The notes beneath the pieces are model-generated. The model was not told where the DNA came from, ran no database searches, and saw only the letters and a list, made by a program, of their open reading frames with translations. Source: Marchantia polymorpha subsp. ruderalis (taxonomy: Eukaryota; Streptophyta; Marchantiopsida; Marchantiales; Marchantiaceae). Taken from it: a stretch of 64,000 nt of DNA. Positions 1 through 64,000 of this stretch are shown here, in pieces. Position 1 is the stretch's first letter. Every line of letters starts with the position of its first letter. The stretch covers positions 9,308,001-9,372,000 of the forward strand of contig AP031358.1 of assembly GCA_037833965.1 (NCBI GenBank), written 5' to 3'. Position numbers and translations under genes: made by a program.

Positions 1-400
1 ATGGCCGCGGCGTGGTACGCTGGCGGATTTCATATTACCAATTCGAGCGTGTGAGTGAAGTTGGCGTCGGCGGAGCGTGAAGCCGCGCGTGAGAGAGAAG
101 GCCGTTATACCTCGGAGCGGGCGCGGCCATCAAGTGATTCGACTTTCACGACCAAGAGCCGACCATGACCTCATGCGAGCGGACAGAGGACGCCCCATTC
201 TTGAATTTGCGATTTCAAATTCTGGTGCGAGCTTCGCGCGTCCACCTTCTAGCTGAGAGACGTTCTAGACATCACCGCGAGGAGAGTTACTCGGTAGCTG
301 GGAGAGAATCGAGATTAGAGTTTGCAGAGAAAACAGAATCGCGAGCAAGAGGCTCGGCCATAGTAGAGAGAGAGTTGCGCAAACCAATTTCAAGAACGCG

Positions 401-3160
401 ATGTCGACATCGGTGAGGCTGCGGATGGTGCCACTCAAGCTCCCGCAGAATGGGTTGCGTGCTTTTGAGGACCGGCTGATTGCAAGGAAACTCGAATTCT
501 TGCTGTGGGGATGGAATTACGTGTGCGCAGATATGGTGCGCGAATGGCTGGACGAGGAACGACAACCTACGCGCGGATTCCGTCCGCACGTGGATAGATG
601 GACTGTCCGCGATTGGGACAGGCATTGGGGAGGTGCGCAGGTGAGGACGGGTACCTCCTGTTTGACAGTGAAAGCGTCAAGGTAACGAAGGCAGACGAGG
701 CCTCCTTCGTGGAATTGTTCAAGCGGGAGAGGTCTTCCAAGAACGGGTACAGGACCCGCGACTACAAAGATCGTTTCCGCAGGACCGTAGCGATGGCGCT
801 GCTGCAATTGTTGCAGCCGCACCGCACTACGTACATCACGTTGTGGCAGGTGTCCTTCGTGGAGCTCACGTTGGCTGGAGCTCCAGTTCACTGGTCGCGT
901 ATCCTGCATAGGGTAATGCGACAGCATGCGTTTGAGGAGCGGGGAGGAACTCTCAATCACCTCTCTCCCTTCTTGATAAATTTTTATCGGTCGATGAATT
1001 GTTTAACCGCAGCCGAGCGTGCTCGATTTCCGCCATTGTCAGTCGACCATCCCGGGAGGTAGGGTCCCCATCACCGACTTCCACTCCACCGGGTCAACAG
1101 GATGCGGGGAGAGACGCATCCGCAGCGCGAGTACCGCGGAAGCGAAGATGGGGAGAGGAACCGGAGAAGGAGCGACATCAAGAATCAGTTGCTCTCACCC
1201 GGAAGCGGCCACTGCACGAGGTCTGCAGCCGGCCGTAGCAGAAGGCGCGCAGGCTTTTGTTACCGGCCAGCAGCGCGGAAACGGCGATGATCGCCACAGA
1301 GAAGGGAAGTCCGTCCCCGGAGAAGGATGGGACTACGCGGACGGCCGAAGGAGCAATAGACCACCCTAAGCCTTCGGCGGAGGAGAGACGACCTTCGGGT
1401 CAGGAGTTATCACGTGCGGCGCGGATGAGTGTGCCGCCTACGCATAGGCGACTCCCTGTGGATAGGCGACCTCTTGCGGACGTGGATTTGTGCCTACGCA
1501 TAGGCAGAGAAAGTTCGCCTACGCATAGGCGGGTGCCTACGCATAGGCAGGACTCACCCCCGGTGCAACGCAGGAAGGGGAAGGAGCCGGCGGAAGATTC
1601 GCCTTCGGCTCAAGGGCCTTCGGGACAAGGCCCTCCGGCGAAAAGATCGCCGAGATATGCGCCTTCGGCGCCAGGGCCTTCGAGCCAGCGAGTTACAACC
1701 AGAGAGCCGGCGGAAGCCGCGCCTTCGGCGGGAAATCCGCCGGAAGATGCGCCTTGGGCGGAAGGGCCTTCGGGCCAACGGACATCGGGCGGGCCGCCTT
1801 CGGCTCTACCGCCTTCGGCGGAAGAAGCGCCGGGATTTGCGCCTACGCGTAGGCCGGACGCATCCCTGGCGCAGGACATAAGGTGGAGCAGGACCGATCG
1901 GTGGAGCGGATTGACTGTCTGCAGGGTGAAATTCGTGCGCGCGATGCACAATTACACCCCGCGCAGGTACATTCCGCACGATCGCCTTCGGCGGTAGACG
2001 CCGGCGGCGAAGAAGTTACAGTCGCGGCACGACAGGCAGACGATGGGGATGTGGCACGGCCGCATTCACCCACCGTCTTGGACATTTTAGCAGGGAGCAG
2101 CGAGGCTGCAGGAGCGCCAGCGGCGGCAGAGCACGCAGACATCTCGCAGCCCCACCCAGGCCAGTCGCCGACGCATTCAATGGCGACCGAAATCCTCAAT
2201 TCGGAGGATGACGAAGAAGGACGATCCACAGAATCAGTGTCGGGATCGAGATCCACCGAGGAGGAGGAGGAATTGGTAGGTGCGCCGGCGGCGGCGCTCT
2301 GTGAGCAGGTAGTACCTCTGCTGAGGTACTTGGATCGCAAGATGGAGAAGTACGCGGACCCTCTCCAGCCTGGGTCCTACGTCGAGTTAGTGCGCACGCG
2401 AACTCGCACTAAAGTCCACACCAGCAAGTTGCTGGCCCGTGTGGACCAGGAACTTAAGGCTCTGCAGGAGAAGCATGAATGCCTGTGGGATCAATACACC
2501 CTCAATAAGAAGGTGTACAAACACTTCGACAGGGTCAAGGATGAGAGGCTGGAAGAGTTCGCCAAGGAGAAGGTGAAGCTCACAAAGGCGCTGGATTCTG
2601 AGCAGGCTTAGAATCGAATTTTGTCAGAAGAGCTCGTGCGACAGATGCGGTTGTTAGAGCAGTGTCAGCTCGCACGGCAGGCGGATGAGGAATTAATCCA
2701 CAAACTGCAATCCGAGTGCGGAGAATTGAGAGCACAGCGTGCGGAGGCCGAATTGCAGTTGGTTGTGGTTGAAGACGATCGCCGACGGGAGGCAGATCGC
2801 ACGAAGGAAGAGATGGCGAGGCGAGTCACCCACTGCCTCAGGGGCTACGCCCACTGGGAAGAAGCGGCGCAGGAGAAACTCACACTGCGTGAGTTAGAGC
2901 TTCGTGCGGCCGGGTTGTAGACAGGTGACAGTCGAAGTCGGCGGCGAGTGGCGAAGAAGCTGGATTCTGTTCTGTTGAAGTCGCGGGACACCATGGCCAC
3001 CCTTGAGACGGAGGTTTCCGCGGTGTTGCGACGTTTGGGACTGCGCAGTCGAGCTGAAGACTGGCAGGATAGGAAGTTAGTGCGCGGCAGTCCGTCGCGC
3101 AGGAGGCGGAGCACAGGTTCTGCGGAGTGTAGTGTAGCGTGGTTCCGTGCAGGCGCGTAG
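401..3160 (+). pseudogene. Copy A of a repeated N-domain/coiled-coil protein family (decayed)
   Basis: I do not recognise a named family. Several reading frames line up with copy B (6465-8644). The order is an N-terminal globular segment (about 401-1062, containing LEFLLWGWNYVCADMVREWL, with a frameshift near 630-640), a basic stretch (KRRWGEE, 1130-1180), a Pro/Ala/Ser/Gly-rich linker (1257-1997), an acidic segment, a VVPLLRYLDRKMEKY block (about 2300-2350), and then a long charged heptad-like coiled coil to 3160. The frame from 1883 to 3160 is continuous except for TAG stops at 2609-2611 and 2918-2920. A CLRGYAHWEEA segment near 2840 and VLRRLGL near 3030 match copy B in order. The N-domain's tryptophan-rich layout reminds me of the 'putative plant transposon protein' domain (PF20167), but that is a guess. 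The stops and frameshifts make it a pseudogene. Any function is unknown; the basic stretch and coiled coil suggest a self-associating nuclear or capsid-like protein. Confidence 0.7.
1434..1854. repeat. Array of short palindromes inside the Pro-rich linker of copy A
   Basis: The unit GCCTACGCATAGGC, with 5-bp arms and a 4-bp loop, recurs at about 1435, 1491, 1516 and 1534. A fully palindromic variant GCCTACGCGTAGGC lies at 1841-1854. Between them, CCTTCGGC/CCTTCGGG words recur dozens of times. In frame they encode PTHRR and PSA/PSG-type peptide repeats. Seen directly in the sequence. Confidence 0.8.
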
Positions 3161-4182
3161 CGTAGTGCAGTGTAGTGTTAGTTAGGACTTAGAAGGTATA
3201 AAGTAGTTCAAGGCGTCTTGCCTTGGGATTTTTCCAGTTTCGGAAGTGCAGATCAGGAACTCATTTTCTGTGCGTGTTTGTGTCCTTAGTTCTGTCACCA
3301 CGCAAGAGGAGCTACACCTTGGCGGTCCGCATTGTGTAGCTGAAGGCCTTCGGCCGAATGTTCAGAGTTAGTACATTGGTTAGAGACTTGAGTAGTTCGG
3401 ATCTACACCTGCGGGTGATTGCCGATGCTTAGAGCCAGTGACGAGTTAGATACTTGAACAGTTTCCCCCTTACCCTTTCGAGTGACTGTTCCTGATTGTA
3501 CTCCTTCGGGATTTTTCCCCTGAATGCCAAAGTGAAGTTTTGCTACTTCGTGTAAACCTTGGTTGTAAATTCAGGTTACACTACAGCAGGTGCCTTCAGG
3601 GTAACTCCTGTAGTAATTCTGGGAATGATAAGTGCCTGAGAATTCAAACTCTTCAATAGACTGTTATGGTGTGTTACTGGATCGTTTCTCAGTTGAGTCC
3701 TTCCGTGCGGACCTGTGTTCTCTGCGCGTTTTGTGAGTTGAGAGTGTTGTTCACCGCGTGTGAGTGACTTCGATCCGAAGTAGGAAGTCCAATCCGGGTT
3801 CCCTACGCTAGCAGAAAACTAGTGGAAGGGTTGTAAAAGCTGGAGTTGGGAGTCACTACCCGCAGCTTTGCTAAGTGTACTCGCGAGAGACTTTCCCCCT
3901 GAAATCTTAAGTAGAGGTCCTAACCGATCTCTGGGTTGTGTTTATGTAGTTTCAGGTGTGTGTGTGTGTGTGTGTGTGTGTTGTGTACGCTGCACTGTGC
4001 GACCTCCGAGCGAGCTCCGAGTGAACACTTGCAGTATTTATGGGAGTGACAGTCGCCTGAGAATTCAAACTCCTCAATAGTCTGTTAAATGTGACACTTC
4101 GTACCCTGTGTGTTCCTCTGTCCCTGTGGGTTCGACCTTTCTACCACTATATTGCAATTTTAGCCTTTAGTGGGTTATTACA
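3161..4182 (+). repeat. Non-coding tail of copy A, with internal duplication
   Basis: No ORF is convincing. The block GCCTGAGAATTCAAACTC occurs at 3633 and again at 4055, each followed by a near-identical TCAATAG-CTGTTA. The preceding 150-200 bp also align (a GTACTC word followed by TTTCCCCCTGAA or TTTTTCCCCTGAA), so the tail is duplicated with a period of about 420 bp. A (GT)n tract lies at about 3956-3981. The last 60 bp (CCTGTGGGTTCGACCTTT at about 4123, then TACCACTATATTG and TTATTACA at 4182) match the end of copy B at 9124-9181. This marks 4182 as the probable 3' end of the element. The tail could be an LTR or a long 3' UTR. Confidence 0.55.
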
Positions 4183-4931
4183 AGTAGTTTCACTGCTCGA
4201 CGTGGAGATGTTTTTCCAAGGTCCAGTTGATAGATTCATGACCGACCTACTGCTGGGAACGTGAGAGCAAGGAGAAATCTAGCAGGCGAGCTACCATTTG
4301 TACGTGTTAAGTTGTTGGTGATAGGAGGGCGATGGAGCTCGAATCGGTATCGCGATGCGATGCTATGTCTCGTGTGTGTTGTCTTGTTTTGTGCTGTGTT
4401 TCTTTTAGACTGGAGAGTCGTTGCTAGCTGTTTGCTTGTGTTTGGATCATCTCCAGTCTTGCTTCCTGGTGCGCGCCCGCTTTGGGGTGACACTGATTTC
4501 CGGAGTAGTTTTACTCATGTGTGCTGTCAATAGCGCGGCTGGACTTGATCACCGGCCGGTCTATCTACGTTTCTCTCACGGTGAGATTGGAGTGATGATC
4601 AGTAGACCGTGAAAGTCTTCTTGCGGTGATGACAGGTTAGGTTGCCCATACCCTTTAGCTAGTAGGGCTAGAGTAGCTTAGTGCGGCACGACATTAGGAG
4701 CAGACATGGCTATTGGCTGGAGTTGTGGAAGTGGTGTAAGTTGAGTTTTTTGTCATCACGGAACAGTTTAGTGATCCTTTTGAGGACCGCGGTGGATTTA
4801 TGCGGAGTGGGTTGAGGTATCGGCTACCTTCACCTATCTCACCAGTTGTTGCAGAGGAGGACTAAGGTGTTGCAGACACAAATTTTTTGATGGTGATATC
4901 GTCCAGTGTTCCAACCCCATTGATTTGAGAC
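4183..4931 (+). other. Leader-like spacer before the gag fragment
   Basis: No supported gene. Short frames on both strands are not conserved in anything I recognise. By position this is the untranslated leader between the copy A tail and the gag-like ORF that starts at 4932. Confidence 0.3.
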
Positions 4932-5504
4932 ATGGACGAGATGTACGTGGCCGTGAAGTGCCCTCGACGGTACTCTGGTGCAGTGGGCACCATCGAGCTC
5001 AATAATTTTATTCAAGAGTTTGACACGTGGTGTGATATGCAGTTTCTGCGTAACTCCACGTTGTTCACACCCTTCTTTGCATGCAAGGGGTTATTTCAAC
5101 ATTTGAAGGGGCCTCCCATGAATGATTATCATGAGTTGGGGAGAGATTATGCTGTAGAGATTAATGCATGGAGACGTCATTGGTCTCCGAATTTATTTAT
5201 CCATTATTCAAGGTGGTGTGGGTACCAGTGGAGGTGCGAGAAGTAGCGTCAGCGAGGGTACCAGTGGAGGAGTTGGCGCAAATGATGCCGGTACCAGCAA
5301 CGGTACGGTTAGCATTGCTGGTGGCAGCATGAGTGGAGATGCTTGTGACGTATCTTCGTTTAGCTTCATTCATGAGTTCTTCAAGAGGTTGAGGAAGAAC
5401 TATCAGGGGGTGAAGACGAAAAAGTTGAGGAGTCTCAAGGAGTTTGAGCGGAAGACTGGTGAGAGTCTTCGGGAGGCATACACTCGTATGCACCGATTGA
5501 TCTC

Positions 5505-5654
5505 AGTTACTCACGGTGTGACTAAGGCACAGACTATCAAGTATTGGTATCGGATTCTGGACAGAGAGTTGCGGTGAAGAGTTACTCACGGTGTGACTAA
5601 GGCACAGGTTGTCAAGTATTGGTACCGGATTCTGGACAAAGAGTTGCGGTGAAG
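5505..5654 (+). repeat. 75-bp tandem duplication within gag
   Basis: Two adjacent 75-bp units start at 5505 and 5580 (both begin AGTTACTCACGGTGTGACTA). They differ at about five positions. The second unit is out of keeping with a working gag because a TGA closes each unit. Confidence 0.9.
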
Positions 5655-6040
5655 AGTTCGTGACGCTACTCTCATGAGCGATGCGTCACCCACATTGGTC
5701 CATGTGTTTGCTCTTTCTGAGAAGATTGAGCTTAACATGGTGGAGGAGAGAGTGATGACGTCTTCATTTGTGAGGAACACGACCACTACCTCACGTATCC
5801 CACATATCACAGCACAATATCGCTTCATGGGTGGTGGTGGTGGAAGTCGTGGAGTTCAGACACGACATCCTTCAGGTAACAAAGAACTTAGTGCGCGGTC
5901 ATCATTGCCTTCATTTTCTAGCTAGCCATAGGGACCATCATGTTAGACATGCGGAGGTGATCATATGAGGAAGGATTGTCCTCAGGAGAGAGGGGGGCAA
6001 ACTTCACAAGATAGGCCACAGCCGTCACAAATGGTGTGTG

Positions 6041-6051
6041 ATCATTGTGGT
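6041..6051. repeat. Left target-site duplication of inserted copy B
   Basis: ATCATTGTGGT here is repeated exactly at 9182-9192. Removing 6052-9192 rejoins the CDHCG of the left gag half to QAGHPQERC of the right half in frame, which is what an insertion predicts. If the element is defined by TG...CA ends, the duplication shortens to ATCAT (5 bp) and the element starts at 6046. Confidence 0.85.
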
Positions 6052-6464
6052 GCCTAGTTTTTTTTTGTTTTTCTTTAAAAATCAATAAAACTTAAATATA
6101 TTTGTGTAGAAATTAGCCGTATGAGTTATAATGAGTAGCTTTTGAGGAGTTATGATAGGATTAGTTAGTATTCGCATACGGCCAAAGATCTTCGGATCTT
6201 CGGCGCAGCCTTTTTTGGACAGTGCAAGAGCTGTGTCTTCGGCGAAGACATCGGAATCAATTTGAAATCGCGCAACGGGTCGAACGACGTTTGCACGCGT
6301 TGAGAACTCTACTGGGCGCGCTAGGAGGCAATGTTATCGCTTCAAGGTTAAGGGCATTACGAGGAGCTTTCGCGCCGACATTGCGATATCGAGCAAGAAC
6401 GAGCGAGAATGAGAGAGAGCAAAATCGACCGACCTTGCTAGCAGCAAAGAAGCGAATTAGAAAC

Positions 6465-8644
6465 ATGGTGCCACCCAAGAAAAGTGACAAGGTGCGGAAA
6501 TTGGTACCCTTGAAGGTGCCCTACGAGGAATTACGACCCTTCATGCGCGAGCTGAGCAAATTGCGTCTTGATTTCCTTGTGTGGAACTGGAATTGCATCT
6601 CGGCGAGTATCTACAAGGAGATTATGGATAAGAACGAGACCAATCCGAGACCATCTACTATCCGATACTATCCGATCACGCCCTCCTCTTTGATCTCGCG
6701 CGAGTTTTCAAGTGCTTGATTACTTCTACCTCCGTTTCAGCTCTTCTGACTTCTAGCGCCAAATCTCCCTCGTCGTCACTCACCACTTTCCTTCTCTTCG
6801 CTAGACGCCGTTTTGGCCTCTCCCGTCTCGGCAGAACGTCGATCTGAACGGATCCTCGGGCTGTCGTCTGTGGTGGGATTGAGGATCCACGGGTATCATC
6901 TTCGGTCCCTTCATTGGACTCAGCTGTCAAGATTTCACGTTCTCTCGGAAATCGCTTCTCCTCCTCCCTTGTAAGCAAATCCATCGGATCCGAGACCAAT
7001 TATCGGATAGTAGCGTGAAAAAGATAGTTGCCCCAATTGTGAGTACACCCGAAGTCGCAGTTGGCGATTCGACACAGCCTGTGGAGATCGAAGGACCTTC
7101 GGGGGTACTAATTGAAGTTCCAGCGGATGTACCGGCGGAACCTTTGAAGGAGGGAACGGAGATGGTAAGTCTGAGAACTCTGTCTTTGGAGCGGACACGG
7201 TCTACGGAGATTGAGAAAATACCTCAACTGAAGAAAAGCGAAGAACTGGTGAAGGAGCTTACACTAAGTGACAAAATACTTGAGCAGGTTGTTGCACAGG
7301 TTGGAGTGACGGTGGTAGATGCCGCGGACATTACATTGCCGTCATCACCTGTGGAAGATGTGAGAACCAAAGAAGAGAAGAAGACTTCAGAGGAGGAATC
7401 GAAGGGGGTAGAGATCACATTTTCCGACTTCTTACATGACAGTGTGGTTCCCCTACTGAAATATCTGGACATGAAGAGAGAGAAGTATGTTGTGTCCAAT
7501 GAGGTAGGATTTTATGTAGAGATGGTGAGGAATAAGACGCAGCTCAAGAAAGCAGTAGCGTTGAAGAGGGAGTGGGATTCCGCAACTAATTTGGCACAGG
7601 AGCGAGCTGCAATCTTGTCAACTTAGTGTGCGGCAGCAAAGGCGGCATTGAAGGAGCGAGAAGCCCAGCTTCGGGAGAAGGAGATTGAGTGCGAAGTGCT
7701 GCAACTGAATTTAGCGAAGGAATCTAGACGGTGTGCAGAGTTAGAAGAGACCTACGGAGGACTTCGCATCTCTAACAAGAATGGGCAGAAGATGATAGTG
7801 GATTTGCTCACAAGGTTGGAGAAATCCAGAGAAGCGTGTGATGGGCCAGTCAAACGATCGGAGCGGTTGATCACAACTACGGAGAGGCGAGAGAAGAAAC
7901 ATGTCGAAGAACTTGCTAAGTTGGAGGTTCGAAGAGCCGAAGAAGTTCGTATCGCCGAAGAACTTCAGGGCAAGATCCCAAAGGCAAAGACGGCGGAAGA
8001 AGATCTTCGTAGCAAGATTTTGGAGATTGCGGGTAAGTGCAAGACGGAATTCCGACGTGCGGAGGAGCTATCAGCGAGTCTAGCGGAGGGAGTCTAGAAG
8101 CATGAAGAGGAGTTTGGCAAATTGGGTCAAGAAATTGGAGGATTGCGAATCGGCCAAGTCTTCGAAGGTCAAATGTAAATTGAAAGTTGAATTGGAATGT
8201 AGGGGGCTGTGGGAGCAGTTAGGCAAAGCGGACATGAGAACGCAGGAATCGCAAAGGAGAATGGAAAAGGCAGAGGAGGCTTACCGTGAGCTACGAGATG
8301 AGTCAACCAACGAGTTGAAGTTGCGTTTGAAGAAGTGTCTGAACGGATTTGCGATGTGGGGATTGCAAACGGTGAAGTGGCTGAAGCTAGATTCACTCGA
8401 GCGACGTTTGACGAGCACCAAGACTAGTGGATCCGTAAGACACAAACAGATTGTAGAGTTAGTTAATTCGTTTTCAGAGGGATTCAATGAGGCGCGCCAG
8501 AATGTAGAAGTAGATATTGTAAATGTGTTGCGTAGGATAGCAGTATATGTAAGTTCAAATGACACTGTAACCGCTACATCCGACGGCACAGCTCTTGAGA
8601 CCGATTCGCCTCAAGACGTTGATATTCCAGAGTTGCCATTGTGA
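6465..8644 (+). pseudogene. Copy B of the coiled-coil protein family (decayed, internally inverted)
   Basis: The ATG at 6465 begins MVPPKKSDKVRKLVPLKVPY and FLVWNWNCISASIYKEIMD, matching the N-domain of copy A. The frame is lost at about 6670, where a segment to about 7012 reads as coding only on the opposite strand. From 7015 the plus frame resumes with an acidic Val/Glu-rich region, then VVPLLKYLDMKREKY (about 7447-7490), then over 300 residues of charged coiled coil. TAG stops lie at 7624-7626 and 8095-8097, and a frameshift lies near 8115. The distal part contains CLNGFAMWGLQTVKWLKLDS (about 8337-8395) and VNVLRRI, and ends with a TGA at 8642. It is longer in the coiled coil than copy A. 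It looks like a structural, self-associating protein. Function unknown. Confidence 0.7.
6676..6999 (-). other. Inverted internal segment of copy B
   Basis: The only sensible coding here is on the minus strand: a Lys/Arg-rich, acidic-flanked stretch (KRRLAKRRKVVSDDEGD). The same place in copy A carries a basic stretch on the plus strand. The junctions carry inverted words: CTACTATCCGAT at 6655-6666 and ATCGGATAGTAG at 7002-7013. This fits an inversion of about 340 bp after the family's normal order was established. Confidence 0.65.
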
Positions 8645-9181
8645 ATAAAGAGTCCCAAGGCTCTTTCCTTGGGGGGCTTTTCTGTCAATTGGCTTGTCTT
8701 GACTGTAAACCTGCATCCACTATGTATCTGTGTGCTGGTGTGTGAACTAGACATCGAGCACAGTGCGATCCTGTTTGTCGAAGTTACCGCATCGAGAGTT
8801 GTGTGTATTCAGCTTGAATGTTTTGAGTAGCCGAGTGCTCCTTGGAATCTAAGCAAATTCAAGTCTGGATATTTGGGTCAGTGTGTTGGGATGTACGCAA
8901 TGCTACAAAGTTTTTCTCCTGAAATATGAGTGTGGGGTCGCAAGCGATTCCTACAGTTGTTGATTGGAAAAGTTTCAGGTTGTGAGTGTGGTTACGCACT
9001 ACTCTGCGGATCTTTGGCTCTAGCTGGGTAGTGACTTCTCGGACTGGCATTGGCCTAAGAAGTAAAACTCCTTAATAGAATGCTAATCTGTGGCAAATCG
9101 TGACTTTTGTGGTTGTTTTCCTGCCTCGTGGGATCGGATCTGTACCATTATGCTCCATTTTGGTATTTGTTTGCCATTACA
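8645..9181 (+). repeat. Non-coding tail of copy B
   Basis: No ORF. AAACTCCTTAATAGAATGCTAA at about 9064 corresponds to the duplicated motif in the tail of copy A. CCTCGTGGGATCGGATCT followed by TACCATTATG corresponds to the copy A end block. The tail is a single unit here, shorter than in copy A. Confidence 0.55.
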
Positions 9182-10406
9182 ATCATTGTGGTCAAGCGGG
9201 TCATCCTCAAGAGCGTTGTTTTGACCTTCATCCGGAGTTGAGGTCTGGAGGTAGAGCTCGTGGCGGTGATGCTCCAAAAGGCCGAGGTGGTAGAGCCGGT
9301 AGGGTGGTAGAGGTACCGGTGCCATTGAGTGTATCGCAGCGAGTGGTACTTCTGCCACAAAGAGCGCTATGGCTGCTCAAATTGAGCAGTTGGAGCAGAA
9401 GCTTGCTGCTATGGTTGGTCTTGGGGTGAGCACTTCCACATCGTACGAGACAGAGGATTTCTTCTATTTGACGAGTGCAGCACAGGTGGAGTCATCAGTT
9501 GGAGTGACCAGAGGTGGTGCTCGCGCTTCAAAGCCACGTGGTGCGACTTTGGATTTGGAACCCTAGAGGGATGAGGGTGGACGTCAAGTCAGACTTCCCC
9601 AATCCTTTTTCTTATCGGAGGTAGTTAGGAGTTCATCTATGAGACCTGCACCACCTAGTGACACTGGAGGTAGAATAGAGATTCTTACATCATTTGTTGT
9701 GGACGCGGACGTGCCATCCGGTGTAGTGATGCGGATGGCCACTTCAGTGCTGAGATCTCCATTGTTTTTAGCCACGGAGCTGATGGACTCTAGTATTGAT
9801 TTGGCTCGAGTATTTCGGGTAGCATCCACGTCGTGTGAGAGTGGAAGAGTCACTGCTACGAGTGTCGAGATATGCGAGAATACAGTTGAGGAGACATCCT
9901 CAACGTCTACATTGATCGAGGAGACGTCTTGGCAGGCGGTAGCGGCAAGGATGGAGTCCTTACCAGCTCAACCAGCCATTGATCGTGAGAGGATTGTCCC
10001 TGGTGTGTGTATGATAGACAACCGGAGTGGCTTATTTTGCTTGGTGAGTTCTACCGAACAAGTGTATGTCCCAGCCAAAGTTTTGTTGAATTCTGGTGCA
10101 TAATCCTTGATGTTGGGCAAGGCTGCATGCATTAGTTTGGATATTCGGAGATCAGAGTTGGAACCTTGCCCATTCTAGATCCAGACATCACTCGGTGGCG
10201 CCAGCGATAGGTCTTACTTTATGACCAGGGAGAGCATAGCGGTGCAATTGAGGCATGATCATGCTCATGATAGCTCGCATTTTGGAGTTCGTGCGGTGGT
10301 TACATCAGCAGAGTCATATGATGTGCTTGTTGGTGGAGCTGTATTATATCCGATGGGTTTTCGGAAGGACTATTGGTCAGAGACAGCTGCCTATTGTCTT
10401 GGTTGA
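9182..10406 (+). pseudogene. Ty3/gypsy-like gag 3' part and degenerate aspartic protease
   Basis: The sequence resumes the zinc knuckle (HCGQAGHPQERCFDLHPEL), then a Gly/Arg-rich stretch, a frameshift, and MAAQIEQLEQKLAAMVGLG (9369 on), a short coiled coil. From 9639 a Ser/Thr/Glu-rich region leads to a retropepsin-like motif VPAKVLLNSGA (about 10067-10101). The catalytic Asp of the expected DSG is Asn, and a TAA follows directly. After further stops a segment around 10221-10390 (YDVLVGGAVLYPMGF) fits the distal part of the protease domain. No reverse transcriptase follows; the element stops at about 10400. With 4932-6051 it forms one gag-protease remnant split by copy B. Confidence 0.65.
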
Positions 10407-11150
10407 TAGTTTTGCAATGGACTGTAAGACCGATTATCGCATGTGTGAAATAAATCTAGAATTAGCCAATGAGTTAATCATGGTTAGAATAGTTATGACT
10501 AAATCTAGCTATTTATGACTAAGTCTAGCTAGTTTAGATATAATGTCTATACTTGGCGGAATAACTAGAAAAGTTCTAGAAGATTTGATTGAGCACTTCT
10601 ATTTTGTCTTGTACAAAAGTCTAGATTCCAAGAAAAAATATTGTTTGACTTCATGTTTAGTTTTGATTGGTTTGACTAAGTAAAGAGTACTCCATTGGCT
10701 AAACTAAGTCTTATGTTGACTTAGTGGAAAGTGGAAGTTCTAGAAGTTGGAAAGGCACAAATAGCATGTCGCCACCTGAATCTAGGTATTAATAAACATC
10801 TAGAAGGTTTAGGAGGTCAATGGCATGTTGCCACATATTGATAACTAGTCAACCTTACTATGGTTTATTTTTGTAAAAGTAAGTTAGATAGAAATTACCA
10901 TTTGTTACTATGGTAAATTCTTAATTAGTATATATATATATATAGAGGTAGGGAAAAGCCTCTCAAGCAAGTTTGGAGAGTTCATATGTAGGGACTTGTT
11001 TCATATATGAAAGAGTGATAAATTTTTTGTACCTTTGAATGTCGATGAGTGTGTGAGTTGGAGTGATACCTTGAAAGATTGTGTGAGATGGTGTTTGGGC
11101 TATGAGTATGATGCGGAATCCTAGTCTTCTAGAACCATGATGAGCGCAGG
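10407..11150. other. AT-rich spacer, possibly LTR-derived
   Basis: No gene. TCTAGAAG words recur, and CATGTCGCCAC and CATGTTGCCAC recur near 10768 and 10824. A (TA)n run lies at about 10929-10943. The style is that of an LTR or untranslated leader of another element, but no second copy lies in the window to prove it. Confidence 0.3.
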
Positions 11151-12193
11151 TTTTGCTTCGAATGAGAAAATCCTGTAAGGTGGAAGCTTACAAAGGAAGT
11201 AGAGCAATGGGAGTGTTAGAGGGATGGATTATGAGGATGAATATTCATTTATCCCATTTTCATGTTTCTGATTATATTGCAGGATTGTTCATGAGATCTT
11301 ATCTTACGGATAAGGCTCTCACATGGTACACAACATGGGAGAGAATGCTTTCAAAACGAGGTGCTACCATTTCGTGCAATGGAATGCAGGAAGGACTTTT
11401 GCAAAATTTTCAAGCGGTGTATTCTTTTCAAACTCCAAGAATGAAGTTGTGGGATCTGAAGCAGAAAGGAGGTATTCATGAGTTTATTGAAGAATTTCGT
11501 GATCTTCAAGTATCTATCATGGATATGAGTGGAGCTGAAGCCTTGGACGTGTTCAAACGAGGCTTGAAGGATCAAATTTGAAAGGAGTTGATGGTAAGCA
11601 ATCCATCTACTGTGAATGAAGCAATCGCAATTGCTCAACGAATTTTGGGTGCTTTTGTTGTCACACACGATAAACCAGTGAGCAATTTTTGAGATCCATC
11701 TGGTCCAACACCGATGGAGTTGGGAAACCTTCAACGTAGAGAAGGTTTTGCACCAACAAGAGTACCACCACCAAGATTTGGAGGTGAGATTCGGCGACGA
11801 GGAGTTCCAAATTTGCAAGAAGGGTATGCAAATAACGGACTAGTTTGAGGAGGAGCTGGAGTTCGTGACAATCGTCAATGCTATGCATGTGGACGAATGG
11901 GTCACATAGCCAAGTTTTGTCGAGTTCGGCCGACACAACAAGGAGGACGGCCCATGCAGCGAAGACCGTTCAACAATATGGAGGGGATAAAGTATGAAGA
12001 GATATAGAGGAAGCAGTTTCCGGAAACGAAGATCATCAGTTCTCTTGTCTCGCGGCCTTACTAATTCTACAAAGCGAAGAAAAGGTGAGGTTGGAATAAG
12101 GCAATGGTTGGGAGCTCATGGAAGGAGTAAGAAGCAAGCTCAACTCATTGTCACTTATGGTTTCATGGAAGTACACAAGGTGAGAGTTTTAAT
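11151..12193 (+). pseudogene. Chromovirus gag, truncated (copy 1)
   Basis: The reading frame gives a capsid-like region (LTWYTTWERML, MKLWDLKQKGGIHEF) to a TGA at 11579-11581, where the second copy has an Arg codon. It then continues through further stops to the zinc knuckle CYACGRMGHIAKFC (about 11879-11920), which is intact here. Gag would assemble RNA-containing particles. This one lacks its N-terminus and is broken. Confidence 0.85.
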
Positions 12194-12458
12194 TGATACT
12201 TGAGCAACTTAGAATTTTCTATCAAGCAGTGTTGCTATGAAGTTAGGTTTGATGTTGATGAAGTACGTGAGTGAAGAAGTTGAATTGCCAAACGGGCAAA
12301 CTGAAGTGATAGAAACACTACCACGGAGTGTAGAATTATCCATAGGTAGATACAAGGAGAGCATTGAATGGAGAGTAATTCGTTTAGCTCGATATGATGT
12401 CATTATTGGAATGCCATGGATGGAGCAATATAATCCGAAGAAAAGTGATTACAAGTAG
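12130..12458 (+). pseudogene. Chromovirus protease (copy 1)
   Basis: A retropepsin-like frame (VRVLIDT, then a TGA in place of the conserved Gly, then NFLSSSVAMKLGLML) continues to VIIGMPWMEQYNP. Relative to the second copy, 14 bp are missing after 12437, which shifts the frame. The aspartic protease normally matures the polyprotein; this one cannot. Confidence 0.8.
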
Positions 12459-12499
12459 TGGATGGAAGATCTATGGAAATAGAATTAGATCTCATAATA

Positions 12500-13990
12500 G
12501 GAATTTAACCCTCTTTGTGATGGGTACATCATCCATTTCTAGAGATGATGTATATTTCCTTGAACTTAAAAGAGATATTGGGTCCACGGACAAACCTTAC
12601 ATCCCGGAGTCCTTGAACAACATTTTTATGGAGTATAAAGATGTTTTTCCAGATGATCTACCTGAAGGATTATCACCAAAGAGGCGAGTAGATCACAAGA
12701 TTAAGGTGATACCTAGAAGTACACCAACTTGCAAAGCTCCATATCGTTTGGCTCCAAACGAATTGGAAGAATGCAAAGCTCAAGTGGAGTAGATGTTGAG
12801 CAAGGGATTCATTCAACCAAGTGTTTCATCTTATGGAGCTCCAGTACTCTTTGTGAAGAAGAAGGATGGATCCATCAGACTATGTATCGATTATCGCGGG
12901 TTGAATCAGCAAACGGTGAAAAACAAATATCCATTGCCTCGTATGGCTGATTTGTTTGATCAACTTCAAGGAGCGAAGTACTTCACCAAGCTAGATTTGA
13001 GAAGCTGCTACAATCAAATTCGAATTGCAGATGAACATGTTCACAAACAGCTTTTCGTACTAGGTATGAACACTTTGAGTATCTAGTGATGCCTTTTGGT
13101 CTCACTAATGCACCAGCTACATTCATGTGATTGATGAACGATATCTTTTGCCCTTATCTAGATAAATCTGTCATTGTTTTTCTAGATGATATATTGGTGT
13201 ATAGCAAAACTTTGAGTGATCATAGAAGTCATTTACGAGAGTTACATCAAGTTTTAAGAGACAATCAATTGTATGCCAAAGCTTCAAAATGTGAATTTGG
13301 CAAGTCAGAAGTAGATTACTTGGGTCATAGAGTTACAGCTACATGAATCCAAGTGATGAGTGAGAAGATAGATGCCATTCAGAAATGAATAGCACATGAG
13401 GATTAAACTCAATTGAAGAGTTTTCTAGATCTCACTGGATTCTATGGTAGATTTGTGAAAGGTTTTGCTCGCCTAGCTCAAGCCTTAACTTCCATGTTAG
13501 GGAAAGGTTAAAAATGGAGATGGGGAACAGCTCAAGAGTTAGCTTTTCAAGCATTGAAAGATGTTTTGTTACACGCACCTTTTCTCAAGTGGTATGATCT
13601 TAACCGTTCTATCAAGTTGGCCACTTACGCATCAGGTACAACAGTAGGTGGCATACTTCAACAAGAATGGGAGGATGGATGGCATCCAGTTATTTTCTAT
13701 TCTCGAAAGTTGATGGCGGCGGAACAAAATTATCACACGACAGAACGGGAGGAGTTAGCCATCGTGTTGGCAACCAAACATTGGAAGCATTACTTGGGTG
13801 ATAAGGAGTTTGTGGTGGAGACTGATCATAAACCCTTGGTTTATTTGGAAACTCAGAAGGATCTATCCAAACGACAAATTCGATGGGCAGAGTGGCGTCA
13901 ACGCTTCAACATGAAGATTGTGTACGTGGAGGGAAAGAAGCAACTTCCAGATGCTCTCACACGCATGCCTTGTTTAGATCATGTTGCAGA
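12500..13990 (+). pseudogene. Chromovirus reverse transcriptase and RNase H (copy 1)
   Basis: RT motifs occur in order: [52 protein letters not shown], a frameshift, [12 protein letters not shown], and the active-site box [11 protein letters not shown] (about 13174-13206). LGHRV and FYGRFVKGFA follow. RNase H follows with a degraded first motif (TYASGTTVGGILQQ, where TDAS is expected), EELAIVLATKHWKHYL and TDHKPLVYL. Stops at 12790, about 13082, 13128, 13344 and others interrupt it. It is the most complete pol segment in the window. Confidence 0.92.
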
Positions 13991-15458: not shown

Positions 15459-15877
15459 TGTAACCATTTTTAGTTAGTTAGAACTAAAATAGAGGTTACT
15501 CTTAATATTGATGTATATACTTTAGTGTGCACTAGTCATAGCTACCACGTCAGCGATCCGCGCACTTGGTAGGTACACAGTGGATGTGTTAGTTGACAGT
15601 GCCACGTCAGCAATCCGTGTGCTTGTAGTTAAGGATCGGGTGTATTAGTTAGTGTGTTAGTTGGGTGCGCCACGTCAGCGATCCGTGTGCTTGTTAGGGT
15701 TATCCGTCACGTCATCCATCCACTATGAGTGGGATAGATGGTGAGGATTAGATCTTATCTCCTTGTACTTGTTGGTGAGAGCTATATAAGGTAGAGGAGA
15801 ACCATTGTTGGTATCTCTCATTTTTAGAGTTTACTTTCTATCTTCGAGTGAGCTTCTCTCTAAACCCTAGTGTTACA
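15459..15877 (+). repeat. 3' LTR of chromovirus copy 1 (419 bp)
   Basis: It starts TGTAACCAT and ends GTGTTACA. It aligns along its length with 61119-61538. A TATA box (CTATATAAGG) lies at about 15782-15791. The U3 part holds four ACGT-core words: CCACGTCAGC at about 15545, 15602 and 15670, and TCACGTCATC at 15707. Spacing is roughly 40-70 bp. They resemble bZIP-type G/C-box sites and are the probable enhancer. Confidence 0.95.
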
Positions 15878-15894
15878 ATGAGCTACCAAAAAGC

Positions 15895-22870: not shown

Positions 22871-25800
22871 TTAAAGAGCATTCATGGTAGATGAGAATCC
22901 GTATTTACCAGGAGAAACCCTCATCATATGACTATCTTCGTTGTTGGACTGCAACGTCGCTCGGTACAACATGTACCGCTTATGCCTCACTGCAACATTG
23001 CCAATATATCAGTAACATGTCGGTCAAGCAAAAAACTAACAATATCTCCCAGACTTGAAAAGTTTCTAACACCACATCCATCACTGACTTAAGACTTTAT
23101 GTAATATAACTGTGATAGAAGCCACAACAGAGCCGAGAAACAATATCAAAAAAACACATGGTGATGTTGAGAATCTTACTTGCGAGCTGGTGAGGAAGAC
23201 CGAAGTTGTAGTCGTCTTCAGAATTCCTCTTTCTGATACAGAAACATACCAAGAACAAGAAAACCGCTGCTCCGACCAAACTTGCCAGCACAATACCAGC
23301 TTTTGCTCCAGCCGACAATCCGGAGTCCTCCCAAAAATGGGGGCACGTTGGTAGTGATGGCACTCCGCACAGTCCTTGATTTTGTGACAAGCTGCTAGGA
23401 GCAAAAACCACAGTGACTAACGTCTACAGGCCTTCGTGATGGAGAACGACATCATCGCGCATTAACTGCACTGTCTTCAACTACACAATGAGAAGATCAA
23501 ACAACATAGACAAAGCTAAACACCAAGATCTGGACGATCTGTTGTAAACGTGTAGAGATACTTACTTGATAAACCCACCGCGCACACCTATAGAATAAAG
23601 GGCCTCCGGAACGAGCCCAGTCAAGAGATTTTGGTTCAAAAGTCTGCAAAGCACAGAAACACACATTCAATGCAAGTTCCATGTCTTTCGAGGTTTAGCT
23701 GTAGGTCAAACACTAGACCTGTAAATTTCTGCAAAAGGAGAAGTCGCAGGCCAGCCCATACTGTCAATCTCATCCAAGTATGTAGAGATGACGACAAGAG
23801 GATTCAAACTCAGGACACAGATACTTAGCAAAAGGAACCCGGACTCGGGGTTGTGAATCAGAAACAAGTTGTGCCAAAATACTACTACTAGCTGTAAAGA
23901 CACAAGCATAGCGAAAAGTGTAATAAAAAAATTCAGAATCTTATAGAACTTCCAACTCTCCACATACAAATCAGTCAGAAATCAAGTACGGTGAGAATGA
24001 CATACACGCGAGTAAGCTGAGATGCACCCAAGCTGTCGGGTATTATGCCCGTCAAAGAATTAGTGGACAAATCCCTGCATTGCAAATGAAAAACCTTAAT
24101 TTACTAGAGAATTTAGCCTTCAACTGAACTGGAAAATGCAAGGACATTCACGTTAGTGATATATTTCTGATCATCAGTCCATTTTCTGTGTGTGCATGTA
24201 CAATAAACATCTTAGGTCCACAACCAATCTTCATATCAAATTATACTCACACGCTCTCGAGGGCACCACCTCCAAGACCTGATGGAATACTACCGCTAAT
24301 GTCATTGTTGCTAAAATTCCTGCATAACAATTTGTTGATTGTTGGTTTAGCCAAAGAAACCAGGATATTTTGAGGCTAACTGAAAACCCCAGCTTGAGAA
24401 AGCAGACAGACATTTCATCACACTTTTCTCAGATATGATGAAAACCATACACTCCAAGAGTCTGCTCCTAACAAGTGAAATACAAATTCGCGACAACGAC
24501 TCAAGAATCAATACCACTTCAAGAACTATGCTTATAAAATCTTTCATATATCACTTACATAAAAGTCAGATACTTAAGCTGCGTGATTTGGTCGCTTATG
24601 TACCCCTTCAGACCCTGATTGGAAAGATCCCTGAGCAAATTTCAACAATACAAGATAAAACGTCATAACGAAGACAAATTCTCGGACCGTGAGAATCCAA
24701 TTCATGCTGTTAAATGTACCACCATCGCTCATGAGTATAAAAATTAAAGCTCTGCACAAAGACTAATATGTCTAAGGCTACCTTGTAACGAATATAAACA
24801 TCTTCCAACCTGCACACACCAATCGAACAACCTGCTTGTGGAAGAACACGTATAATACTGATCGTGCAAAATACTTACAATCGCATGATAACTAGGGCAT
24901 TGACTTCGTTGTCCAAGGTACAACTGACACCTTCCCAAGCGTCCCAACTCGAAGGGGAACATGGGTCTCCATTCCAACCCATTCGATCAGGGACCTGTAA
25001 AGATGTCTTCAACTGTTGCATAGCAGCAGCTGCAGGATCAAGCAGCCATTGGTACCGAAACCAGGATTGTTTATGCACATGGATATAGTTTGATCATGCA
25101 CTTCGAACTTAATACTGATGTATTCAAGAAATATAAATTTGCACGCAATGTGAACATTACTCTCTCGATTACCTACAGCAAACTGCTCCACGAGTATACA
25201 CTTAGCTCCTCACTTACCACAAGCTAAAACCCTTCCCTTTTCTTAAGAAAAAAAAACCTCCAATGTTTGTATTGGATAAAGGCTTGACCTCCTGCATTCG
25301 TCTACCTCGGCCGATACAAATTTAATGGGGAGAGATAAGCAAATGATAATAGACGACAAATATACGAACCTAAAGCTAAATCATTCACATAACTCACCTT
25401 CTCTGCTGTCCGTTCCAATTTCAACCTCAAGAATTGCCAGAACCTCCATGCCACAGATAAGCGGCTCGCCAATCACAGGCTCAAATGTGACAACCAAGTT
25501 CGTGTCCGTCAAATTGCTGTAGGTGTAGTTCAGCGAGAGCGCCGCATAGTTTCCAGCCAACTTGAAGACATCAACTTCGGTAAATATGACATCCTCATTC
25601 ACAGTAATGTTGAATACTCTTTGACCTGGGCCACTTATACTTGGCTCAAATTCAGCGAAATGAAACCAAAGCATGTAATCCAAGCTAGAGTCTACTGTGA
25701 AGTTGTAACTCATAGAAAGATTGGTTGGTGCAACGCGCGCGCTCTGAAAAAGTCTCTCTGGAAAATAATTCGGAGCGACATTGGTATTCCGAATAGGCTC

Positions 25801-27289
25801 AGTCGTGGTGATGAGAAGTTTGGGAGTCGTGCTGAAGGAAGTATCGATTTCCCACGCTCGACCACCTAACTCCGTATCATTGCTCAATCCTGCACCAAAT
25901 GAACTATTTCCTGCTGTAATACGACCATAATTCACCAGAATGACCTCCTGCCCCGTAGAAACGGCATCGTAAGACAAATTATCCACCTGCAGGATCTCCA
26001 AGGCTCCAAGCAACGGCGAATCTGTCGCCCAGCTGTAGAGGCACACAGTAGCAAATCCATCCTCAACGAAGGCGTGAAGATCCGAATAGGCACCTCGCAT
26101 AGCAATATCATCTGCCCACGGGGACCTCCAGCTGAAAACTACTGTCCCTTCCACCGAAACATCAAAACTTGGTGTCGTCGACTTGTGATCATAGTTATCA
26201 TAAACAAAGAACATCCGGATGAAGTATCTTCCCGTAGGCACCGGCACGACATAGCAATGTTTCTTTCCTAGAGAAATAGGAAAGTATCGGATGGTCCGCT
26301 CTTGCTCTTGAACAAAATTTCCTGGGTCAGAAACAGAAGAAACTGATCCTCCTGTGTAATATGCGTCCGCAATCCATGATTCGTTGAACTGATTCGTAAA
26401 ATCGGTAAACCCGCCGCAATCGATTCGAATAACAACGCCACCTACAGCAGTTATATCGTCTCTCGATCAGTAGAAAGCATATTCAATAGATAAGCTCACT
26501 ATGCATCTCGGAGTCTGCATGATAATGACCACCGGTAACGTTTCATGAGCAGGCTCACATTTCCAAACATTTATTATAAAAATAGCACCTATAGTAAGTA
26601 CTAAGCTATATCCGGGATTCGATGGCCAAGTTTTCACGTCCCCATCACTAGTTGGCACCTGGGGTGGCATATAAGCGAGGGATTCTGGATCGCCTTCTAG
26701 CCTCTCTAAACAACGATGTATTACCACTTCTGAGTCACAATTCCCACTACAACTAGCCAAACGGTAAAATACAAGAAATTCGACACTTCCTCATAGAAAC
26801 TGTCCTGCCATTGTACACACAACGCCTGATCTCGCTCGCAAATCAACAGATCCTGAGACCAGTTACACCCAGCCTCCACATTTAATCACGTCATTCACAT
26901 AATCATTTCGAAATTACCAATGCACCCAAATCCGCCTCGAGGCGCTTTCCCTATCCTCCTCCGCCAATTTTATAACGATAGATCTCATCGAAGGATGCAC
27001 ATTAAAACTGAAATTCACACATTTGCTCTTATCTCACCCCCGCTCAAAACACTACTCAATGCAATATCGCGCTCGCTCAACACAAACCGCAAAGAAACAG
27101 AGATGCCCGAGCAGCGGCGATAAGAGGTGAATCTCTGGCAACAGAACACACATGGACCCAGCAGTGATCAGAGGGGGAAGAAAAGATACCAGGCGTCTGG
27201 GCGGTAATGAGTATTGTGTGGACGGAGAGAAATAACAGCAGCTGCACACTCAGCCGAACGAGGCTACTCCTCACACTCAGAAGCTCCAT
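22871..27289 (-). CDS. RLP4: Malectin-like/LRR receptor-like protein without kinase (RLP4 type), 9 exons
   Basis: Hand-joined exons on the minus strand are 27289-27190, 26441-25398, 25029-24879, 24630-24559, 24319-24251, 24074-24006, 23643-23566, 23391-23180 and 22989-22871. All have GT-AG borders, and together they give 637 codons plus TAA. A signal peptide (residues 1-31, SVQLLLFLSVHTILITAQ) is followed by a malectin-like di-glucose-binding domain (about 35-380, starting VVIRIDCGGFTDF), the WNGDPC-x-C hinge (about 400), four LRR units encoded by 69-78-bp exons (about 430-530), the NQGLCGVPSLPTC cap, one membrane helix (about 559-580) and a 55-residue cytoplasmic tail with RHKRYMLYRATL. There is no kinase. 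This is the architecture of Arabidopsis RLP4 and its relatives, including length and tail. It should act at the plasma membrane as a wall or glycan sensor that signals through a partner. A CT-rich 5' leader lies upstream. Confidence 0.93.
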
Positions 27290-61118: not shown

Positions 61119-61538
61119 TGTAACCATCTTTAGTTAGTTAGAAATAAAGTAGAGGTTACTCTAAATATTGATATAGATACTTTAGTGTGCACTAGTCATA
61201 GCTGCCACGTCAGCGATCCGCGCACTTGGTAGGTACAAAGTGGATGTGTTAGTTGACAGTGCCACGTTAGCAATCCGTGTGCTTGTACGTAAGGATTGAG
61301 TGTGTTAGTTAGTGTGTTAGTTGGGTGCGCCACGTCAGCGATCCGTGTGCTTGTTAGTGTTATCCGCCACGTCATCTATCCACTAGGAGTGAGATGGATG
61401 GTGGGGATTAGATCTTATCTCCTTGTACTTGTTGGTGAGAGCTATATAAGGGAGAGGAGAACCATTGTTGGTATCTCTCATATTTAGAGTTTACGTTTCT
61501 ATCTTCGAGTGAGCTTATCTTTAAACCCTAGTGTTACA
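61119..61538 (+). repeat. 5' LTR of chromovirus copy 2 (420 bp)
   Basis: TGTAACCAT...GTGTTACA, aligned with the copy 1 LTR. The TATA box CTATATAAGG is at about 61442-61451. ACGT words are kept at about 61205, 61330 and 61369. The second one is changed to CCACGTTAGC (about 61262). Confidence 0.95.
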
Positions 61539-61539
61539 A

Positions 61540-61551
61540 TAGTATCAGAGC
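61540..61551 (+). promoter_or_regulatory. Primer-binding site (initiator tRNA-Met)
   Basis: AGTATCAGAGC lies 1-2 bp after the LTR and is the common plant element sequence complementary to the 3' end of initiator tRNA-Met. It fixes the 5' LTR boundary and the element's polarity. Confidence 0.88.
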
Positions 61552-63316: not shown

Positions 63317-63399
63317 TCTTGCCTCGCGGCCTTACTGGTTCTACAAAGCGAAGAAAAGGCAAGGTTGGAAGAAGGCAATGGTTGGGAGCTCATGGAAGT

Positions 63400-64000
63400 A
63401 GTAAGAAGCAAGCTCAACTCATTGTCACTAATGGTTTCATGGAAGGACACAAGGTGAGAGTTTTAATTGATCTTGGAGCAACTGAGAATTTTCTATCAAG
63501 GAGTGTTGCTATGAAGTTAGGTTTGATGTTGATGAAGGACGTGAGTGAAGAAGTTGAATTGCCAAACGGGCAAACTGAAGTGATAGAAACACTATCACGG
63601 AGTGTAGAATTATCCATATATAGATACCAGGAGAGCATTGAATGGAGAGTAATTCGTTTAGCTCGATATGATGTCATCCTTGGAATGCCATGGATGGAAC
63701 AATATAATCCGAGTGTAGATTGGAGAAGAAAAGTGATTACAAGTAGTGGATGGAAAATCTATGGAGATAGAATTAGATCTCAGAATAGGAATTTACCCCT
63801 CTTTGTGATGGGTACAGCATCCATTTCTAGAGATGATGTATGTTTCTTTGGACTTATAAGAGATATTGGGTCCACGGACAAACCTTACATCCCGGAGTCC
63901 TTGAACGACATTTTCATGGAGTATAAAGATGTTTTTCCAGATGATCTACCTGTAGGATTACCACCAAAGAGGCGAGTAGATCACAAGATTGAGGTGATAC
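63400..64000 (+). pseudogene. Chromovirus protease and start of RT (copy 2), partial
   Basis: An open frame reads VRVLIDLGATENFLSRSVAM (the active-site Thr of DTG is Leu), VILGMPWMEQYNPSVDWRRK, then DDLPVGLPPKRRVDHKIEV at the RT start, and runs off the window. The 14 bp missing from copy 1 are present here. Confidence 0.85.

What the first reader, a model, noticed from the sequence alone, without database searches (positions are those of the whole stretch)
165..9181. Two diverged copies of an unnamed N-domain/coiled-coil protein family that behaves like a mobile element
Both copies share an ordered plan (Trp-rich N-domain, basic stretch, acidic or Pro-rich linker, PLL(R/K)YLD.K.EKY block, long coiled coil, GYA/GFA-x-W block, VLRR end) and a common non-coding tail end. 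One copy clearly inserted into another element. No transposase or polymerase is encoded with it. It may be a non-autonomous element with a structural, Gag-like protein, or a host gene family spread by retroelements. I believe related proteins are numerous in liverwort genomes, but I know of no described function.
Basis: partly seen in the sequence, partly recalled or inferred. Interest (0 to 1): 0.8.

Follow-up and report, generated by a model that had tools for sequence, protein, structure and literature searches.

The report
Giant retrotransposon LTRs carrying a gene
The two odd liverwort "genes" are leftover single end-repeats (solo LTRs) of Ty3/gypsy retrotransposons whose unusually long LTRs contain a conserved protein gene, which makes the end repeat itself a gene cassette.

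The parts
1..4182 (+). Copy 1: solo LTR, family 1 (whole LTR is C9:9306964-9312182, 5,219 bp; its first 1,037 bp lie before the window)
   Evidence: start TGTGGTACCCC, end GGTTATTACA, TSD AGTAG on both sides; 30 of 31 tail matches of 91-96% identity end at window 4178-4187
401..3157 (+). Copy 1 LTR ORF, broken (in-frame stops and frame changes); N-domain to about 1059, Pro-rich linker about 1060-2290, PLLRYLD block about 2310, coiled coil to about 2900
1370..1992 (+). Motif cluster in the linker: GCCTACGCATAGGC at 1436, 1492, 1517, 1535, GCCTACGCGTAGGC at 1841, and GCCTTCGGC (either strand) at 1370, 1601, 1661, 1721, 1796, 1811, 1984; a second cluster lies upstream of the window
3197..3228 (+). 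TATAAAG followed by a CAAGGC...GCCTTG hairpin just after the ORF; candidate promoter or poly(A) signal at the U3/R border
   Evidence: same in 6 sites of 5 family-1/L047 sequences that the script listed
3603..4087 (+). Two copies (3603-3666, 4024-4087) of a 64-bp block; the second is the only significant DNA match to copy 2
4183..4187 (+). TSD AGTAG of copy 1 (3' side)
4183..6045 (+). Host gypsy-like element between the two solo LTRs (gag-like ATG at 4932, broken)
   Evidence: continuous with both outer flanks in L062, 84-88% identity
6041..6045 (+). TSD ATCAT of copy 2 (5' side)
6046..9181 (+). Copy 2: solo LTR, family 2 (3,136 bp; relatives about 3.5 kb)
6465..8644 (+). Copy 2 LTR ORF, broken (in-frame stops, a deletion and an inversion)
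6681..6984 (-). Segment of copy 2 inverted relative to all six relatives compared; adjacent about 430 bp missing
8644..8680 (+). AATAAAG plus hairpin directly at the ORF stop, counterpart of 3197-3228
9041..9101 (+). Non-coding block shared with copy 1
9182..9186 (+). TSD ATCAT of copy 2 (3' side)
9187..10440 (+). Host gypsy-like element resumes (protease-like region by eye, broken); end approximate
   Evidence: matched in L062 from 9197 to about 10075

Best explanation
Both copies are solo LTRs: what is left after recombination between the two LTRs of a Ty3/gypsy retrotransposon removes the interior. Two families are involved, with LTRs of about 5.1-5.4 kb (family 1) and about 3.5 kb (family 2). 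Each LTR contains an ORF spanning roughly 2.6-2.8 kb in the gag-pol direction (shown). The LTR's 5' border (purine tract|TGTGG) lies upstream of that ORF, so the ORF is present in both LTRs and stays behind in solo LTRs (shown by anatomy). The ORF was kept by purifying selection while the families were active (shown). It most likely lies in U3, expressed from the 3' LTR or from a solo LTR, much as mouse mammary tumour virus encodes Sag in its LTR (inferred). The protein, with a helical N-domain, a disordered basic linker and a coiled coil, most likely binds DNA motifs in its own LTR and regulates or de-silences the element (inferred, about 0.35). The confidence below is for the anatomy and selection, not for this last step.
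For: Perfect 5-bp TSDs in 11 of 11 units whose two ends were located: copies 1 and 2, L039-L044, L048, L049 and the C2 array. Empty sites of both copies in L062. 1,233 exact ATTACA-N{1,30}-TGGCGCCGCTGCC junctions, 0 in the reversed control; 22 of the 100 listed copy-1 tails (of 2,839) run into the leader (by eye); 37 family-2 tail-leader junctions at up to 2 mismatches, 0 in the control. Purine tracts GAGGAGGGGGGCA|TGTG (L051, L052) and GGGGAGAGGAGTA|TGTG (L054). Gag and RT-RH-INT ORFs between LTRs. Array C2:31339940-31390058: four PBS junctions of 11,184-bp period, TSD TGGTG outside. dN/dS of the LTR ORF 0.13-0.42 in 48 of 48 pairwise values, which are not independent. The part upstream of the ORF is unconserved but the last 1 kb 76-86% identical between subfamilies. 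Palindrome arrays in three family-1 LTRs: 9, 6 and 10 against about 0.1 expected, 0 in the 5.8-kb interior.
Confidence: 0.88

Rival explanations
1. A non-autonomous stand-alone element (TGT...ACA ends, 5-bp TSD) with one structural protein, mobilised in trans by a gypsy integrase.
For: The two window copies have no gag-pol; in the tail listings no family-2 unit ran into a leader, but both patterns excluded that leader by their own letters, so this support is void.
Against: Units of both families joined to PBS, gag-pol and PPT exist; a lone unit with TG..CA ends and a TSD is what a solo LTR is.
Confidence: 0.03
2. The ORF lies in R, between a promoter near the LTR start and the ATAAA/hairpin after the stop, so that the short LTR-only transcript is the ORF mRNA.
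For: AATAAAG abuts the stop codon in family 2 and a hairpin follows in both families; it would make every solo LTR a complete gene.
Against: The region upstream of the ORF is the least conserved, as expected of U3, and the distal 1 kb the most conserved; an R region of 2-3 kb would be extreme.
Confidence: 0.25
3. A host gene was captured by the LTR and is carried as a passenger.
For: It has no match to known retrotransposon ORFs.
Against: The ORF is in two deeply diverged families with purifying selection between subfamilies; units whose two ends I read are LTRs. A host locus was not searched for as such.
Confidence: 0.06
4. The LTR ORF is the liverwort counterpart of the sense ORF of Athila elements (PF20167/PF03078), moved into the LTR when the PPT came to lie upstream of it.
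For: Same place (3' of pol, sense); passages of PMC11728184 place PF20167 in a sunflower Athila sense ORF.
Against: No HMM match among the families listed for 40 proteins or for 10 proteins. The PF20167 genome search is uninformative by its own note and the PF03078 search never ran.
Confidence: 0.2

Closest known systems
Ty3/gypsy LTR retrotransposons of plants without a chromodomain (OTA-like)
   Same: LTR ends, 5-bp TSD, PBS, PPT, gag then RT-RH-INT; non-chromoviruses can have LTRs up to about 5 kb and extra ORFs (PMC6317226, passages)
   Different: Here the extra ORF is inside the LTR; no second RNase H was listed; lineage not tested by a tree
Mouse mammary tumour virus Sag in the LTR
   Same: An exceptionally long LTR because the 3' LTR encodes an accessory protein (PMC3026287, passages)
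   Different: Vertebrate retrovirus, about 1.3-kb LTR; homology of the proteins was not tested
Antisense TRP28 (PF04195) ORFs of Retand elements
   Same: Extra protein of unknown function 3' of pol, with predicted DNA binding (PMC11963269, passages including the abstract)
   Different: There antisense and between pol and the 3' LTR; here sense and in the LTR; no PF04195 match listed
VANC anti-silencing proteins of VANDAL transposons
   Same: TE-encoded protein; arrays of short family-specific motifs in non-coding element DNA (PMC5735166, passages); weak fold match of the N-domain to VANC21
   Different: Mutator-like DNA transposons in Arabidopsis; no DUF1985 match listed; palindromes seen only in family 1 and its sister

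Membership tests
Solo LTR | One LTR flanked by a perfect TSD, with an empty site in a relative | tested here: met
   Copies 1 and 2: TSDs AGTAG and ATCAT, empty sites in L062
LTR retrotransposon, Ty3/gypsy | Paired LTRs, PBS and PPT | tested here: met
LTR retrotransposon, Ty3/gypsy | gag and pol in order RT-RH-INT | tested here: met
   L051 and L052: PF03732, PF19259, zf-CCHC; RVT_1, RT_RNaseH, Integrase_H2C2, rve. Protease only weak: PF13650 at 23.7 bits, under its cut-off of 24.3, in L052 and not listed in L051
Tat lineage (OTA) | Additional archaeal-type RNase H | tested here: not met
   No second RNase H family at E <= 0.01 in 2 of 2 pol ORFs
Athila or other OTA lineage | RT-RH-INT phylogenetic position | not tested
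   No named reference set was at hand
PF20167 / PF03078 / PF04195 extra-ORF proteins | HMM match of the LTR ORF | tested here: not met
   None for 10 proteins at E <= 10; not among the 25 of 35 families listed for 40 proteins. Genome search for PF20167 empty but without a positive control; for PF03078 unanswered
Gag / capsid protein | Gag or capsid HMM match of the LTR ORF | tested here: not met
   (listed families); the family's own gag is in the interior
VANC proteins | Shared fold with VANC21 | tested here: inconclusive
VANC proteins | DUF1985 HMM match | tested here: not met
   Not listed
VANC proteins | Dense short motifs in non-coding element DNA, changing between families | tested here: inconclusive
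   Present in family-1 LTRs and, with other letters, in the sister subfamily; about half of them lie in the coding linker; absent from five family-2 LTRs
VANC proteins | Causes loss of methylation of its own targets | not testable with these tools
   Needs transgenic plants and methylomes
MMTV-Sag-like LTR gene | Accessory ORF within the LTR, in U3 | tested here: inconclusive
   ORF within the LTR: shown. U3 rather than R: inferred from conservation and TATAAA only
Cut-and-paste DNA transposon | Long terminal inverted repeats and a transposase | tested here: not met
   No long inverted repeat at the ends in self-comparison of the two copies (copy 1 there without its first 1,037 bp); interiors encode RT and integrase

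The most novel reading that the evidence does not exclude
Liverwort Ty3/gypsy elements carry, inside the LTR, a sequence-specific self-recognition gene: a coiled-coil dimer whose N-domain is VANC-like and binds palindrome arrays in its own U3, opposing silencing. Because the gene sits in the LTR, solo LTRs remain as gene-plus-target cassettes, and protein and target are copied together and diverge together.
Probability: 0.25. Interest if true: 0.88.

Novelty: new variant of a known kind. Interest (0 to 1): 0.64.

Why it matters
Plant LTRs are usually treated as non-coding. A selected gene inside the LTR means that solo LTR formation does not remove it, so deletion of the element leaves a gene family behind, and annotation counts its pieces as host genes (dozens of M. 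polymorpha 'hypothetical proteins'). LTR finders with a length limit may miss such elements (inference; passages of PMC9985172 report 222 full-length LTR elements in M. polymorpha). If the protein recognises its own LTR, Marchantia would be a tractable system for how retrotransposons counter silencing.

Tried and rejected
Stand-alone DNA transposon or non-autonomous element: held for a while because copies 1 and 2 show no terminal direct repeats of their own and the family-2 tails have no shared downstream sequence; dropped. On checking I found that the patterns could not have matched the family-2 leader; an unbiased pattern then gave 37 junctions. PF20167, PF03078, PF04195: no match listed; the PF20167 genome search was empty but no control rang; the PF03078 genome search was asked six times and never answered. 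Fold searches: no Foldseek hit at E <= 0.001 in PDB (both models) or viral structures (one model); the VANC21 row came only from the VIA second look. PDB profile searches: nothing relevant (Beclin-1 E 0.83, Utp6 E 0.16). NCBIfam: only weak hits, best E 0.047, in the coiled-coil half of one of three proteins. An isolated full-length family-1 element on C1 (L055, L056) and the 3' end of the L054 element (L058) could not be closed with a TSD. Palindromes in family-2 LTRs do not exceed shuffles. Literature: phrase searches for LTR-internal ORFs (3 and 14 papers) listed no plant case by title and abstract start; I looked at passages of two of the plant papers (PMC8775202, PMC7302162), where the phrase means something else. 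A Marchantia search with solo LTR and ORF terms held no paper. The library is open access only and searched by phrase, so this does not show absence.

Full report
Setting. The window lies at C9:9308001-9372000 of a 241-Mb, nine-contig genome. Every named database protein close to the units is annotated Marchantia polymorpha, so the genome is M. polymorpha or very near to it (inference).

The units and their ends. A 73-residue piece of copy 2 gave 150 matches, the 150 that were scored out of 6,455 first-look candidates. Comparing six fetched relatives with copy 2 showed one sharp unit of about 3.5 kb, 75-92% identical in the main aligned pieces, beginning TGT and ending TTACA (TTATA in L040). 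Copy 1 belongs to a second family whose unit is about 5.1-5.4 kb (lengths from coordinates). Of 31 matches to copy 1's tail (91-96% identical; 40 of 4,139 candidates were scored), 30 end at window 4178-4187 and one earlier. Copy 1 starts 1,037 bp before the window. In 11 of 11 units whose two ends I located, the flanking 5 bp match: AGTAG, ATCAT, AATGG, AAGCA, AAAGT, CACGC, TCTTC, AGTGA, GGGAA, AGGTA, TGGTG. Not closed: L050 (rearranged at its 5' side), L047 (not tested), the L054 element and one C1 element. A relative of the element that hosts both copies (L062) runs through both insertion points without interruption.

They are LTRs. The exact copy-1 tail occurs 2,839 times; of the 100 places listed, 22 (by eye) continue with TAAGAA..., which leads to a PBS-like TGGCGCC; the label PBS for this word is recalled, not from a call. 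Of those 100 places 78 lie on C1, part of which seems present three times, so 22 of 100 is not a genome-wide ratio. The junction ATTACA-N{1,30}-TGGCGCCGCTGCC occurs 1,233 times, 0 in the reversed control, mainly (in the 100 listed) with two leader types: TAAGRAGCC... (as in L051 and L052) and TAGATAAAT... (as in L054). Nine of the 100 listed 5' ends (of 4,966) are preceded by GGGGAGCA (by eye). In three interiors a purine tract stands directly before the 3' LTR. L051 and L052 carry a gag ORF with a weak protease match in L052 and an RT-RNaseH-integrase ORF; L054, the family-2 example, carries broken gag-pol and behind it the family-2 LTR with the N-domain ORF. At C2:31339940-31390058 four PBS junctions of 11,184-bp period and TSD TGGTG at the outer ends show an array of four interiors and, by the period, five LTRs; the LTR parts compared there are identical (507 of 507 and 95 of 95 bases). 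I did not read every LTR of that array.

A correction to my own path. Two early tail listings for family 2 (searches places) showed no leader, and I first took this as evidence for a stand-alone element. Their patterns exclude the family-2 leader. A pattern of tail plus leader gives 37 places at up to 2 mismatches, 13 exact, 0 in the control. So family 2 has full-length 5' LTRs too.

The LTR gene. In copy 1 the ORF starts about 1.4 kb into the LTR and ends about 1 kb before its end; in copy 2 it spans 420-2,599 of 3,136 bp. Unbroken it would have about 860-920 codons (spans in L040 and copy 1). L047 keeps one 801-codon frame from the N-domain to the C-terminal end. Between copies dN/dS is 0.13-0.42 for N-domain and coiled coil in both families (48 of 48 values, not independent), lowest for the N-domain between subfamilies (0.13-0.22), less so for the family-2 coiled coil (0.21-0.41). 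gag (0.19) and pol (0.07) were compared only between L051 and L052; family-to-family dS is saturated. So selection acted on the LTR protein. Copies 1 and 2 themselves are broken.

Where in the LTR. Between the L048 LTR and L047 the first 1.6 kb is unalignable (45-55% or gapped), most of the N-domain region is 65-71%, and the last 1 kb is 76-86%. Within families conservation is flatter (L048 and L049 81-96%, L040 and L039 69-86%). Directly after the ORF, family 1 has GGTATAAAG (6 sites in 5 sequences) and family 2 TGAATAAAG (6 sequences; L039 was not listed by the script), both followed by a hairpin-forming stretch. I read this as the U3/R border, with the ORF in U3, but a poly(A) reading is possible.

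Motif arrays. GCCT-N6-AGGC occurs 9, 6 and 10 times in three family-1 LTRs (mostly GCCTACGCATAGGC) against a shuffle mean of about 0.1 and maximum of 2, and GCCTTCGGC 15, 11 and 14 times on both strands. Both are 0 in the 5.8-kb L052 interior, the L054 interior, 54 kb of the window and five family-2 LTRs; the 3' part of L050 has 0 and 1, L047 has 1 and 2. The sister subfamily (L052, L053) has GCCTGTGCACAGGC and GCCTGCGCACAGGC instead. The words were chosen from k-mer counts in the same LTRs, so the shuffle figures are after the fact; counting every near-perfect 14-bp palindrome gives 20 against a shuffle maximum of 16 in copy 1 and 7 against 5 in the L052 part, but 12 against 16 in L048. The two palindromes occur 2,166 (both strands) and 8,821 times in the genome, 0 in reversed controls. 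Copies by descent are not independent; the independent facts are the multiplicity within an LTR and the change between subfamilies. They lie in the unconserved upstream part and in the Pro-rich linker of the ORF, partly as repeated segments. A plain repeat origin without function is not excluded.

Known work. A review of extra ORFs in plant LTR retrotransposons treats ORFs in the internal region (PMC7264820, parts 1 and 2 of 3 read; PMC11963269 and PMC6317226, passages). MMTV is a known case of an accessory gene in an LTR (PMC3026287, passages). VANC proteins bind dense short motifs in their own elements and cause loss of methylation (PMC5735166, PMC10398659, passages). Phrase searches for LTR-internal ORFs listed no plant case.

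Verdict. Ordinary in kind (solo LTRs of gypsy elements), unusual in that the LTR holds a conserved gene. The anatomy is secure; the function is a testable guess.

Noticed in passing
G000 contig C1 (5.6 Mb): 45 of the 150 copy-2 protein matches (by eye) lie on this contig, 2.3% of the genome; possibly the sex chromosome (recalled karyotype, not tested).
   Followed up: no
G000 C1 about 2.2-3.3 Mb: A stretch of roughly 0.37-0.39 Mb seems present three times with the same LTR flanks (e.g. tails at 2225524, 2618986, 2985069); amplicon or assembly effect.
   Followed up: no
G000 C2:31339940-31390058 and C2:29864104-29902246: Tandem LTR-interior arrays of constant period (11,184 and 19,051 bp), seen from LTR-PBS junction spacing.
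   Followed up: partly
G000 C8:12514301 and C8:12515040 (5' end of L048): The LTR start with the same 8-bp flank occurs twice, 739 bp apart, so the 5' end of the L048 unit and its flank seem duplicated.
   Followed up: no
window 11151-12712 and 62427-64000; 15459-15879 and 61119-61540: Pieces of another gypsy element in two copies at both ends of the window (92.4% and 93.8% identical).
   Followed up: no
window 6681-6984: Copy 2 holds an inverted segment beside a deletion; words like ATCGGATAG recur at the junctions.
   Followed up: partly
window 25381-26466 (-): Long ORF that looks like a malectin-like receptor ectodomain (by eye, no search).
   Followed up: no
P0012, P0033, P0035: Annotated M. 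polymorpha proteins that join LTR-ORF pieces with gag, RNase H or integrase domains; probably chimeric gene models over LTRs or LTR insertions.
   Followed up: no
window 3603-3666, 4024-4087, 9041-9101: The only significant non-coding DNA match between the two LTR families, duplicated in copy 1; role unknown.
   Followed up: partly
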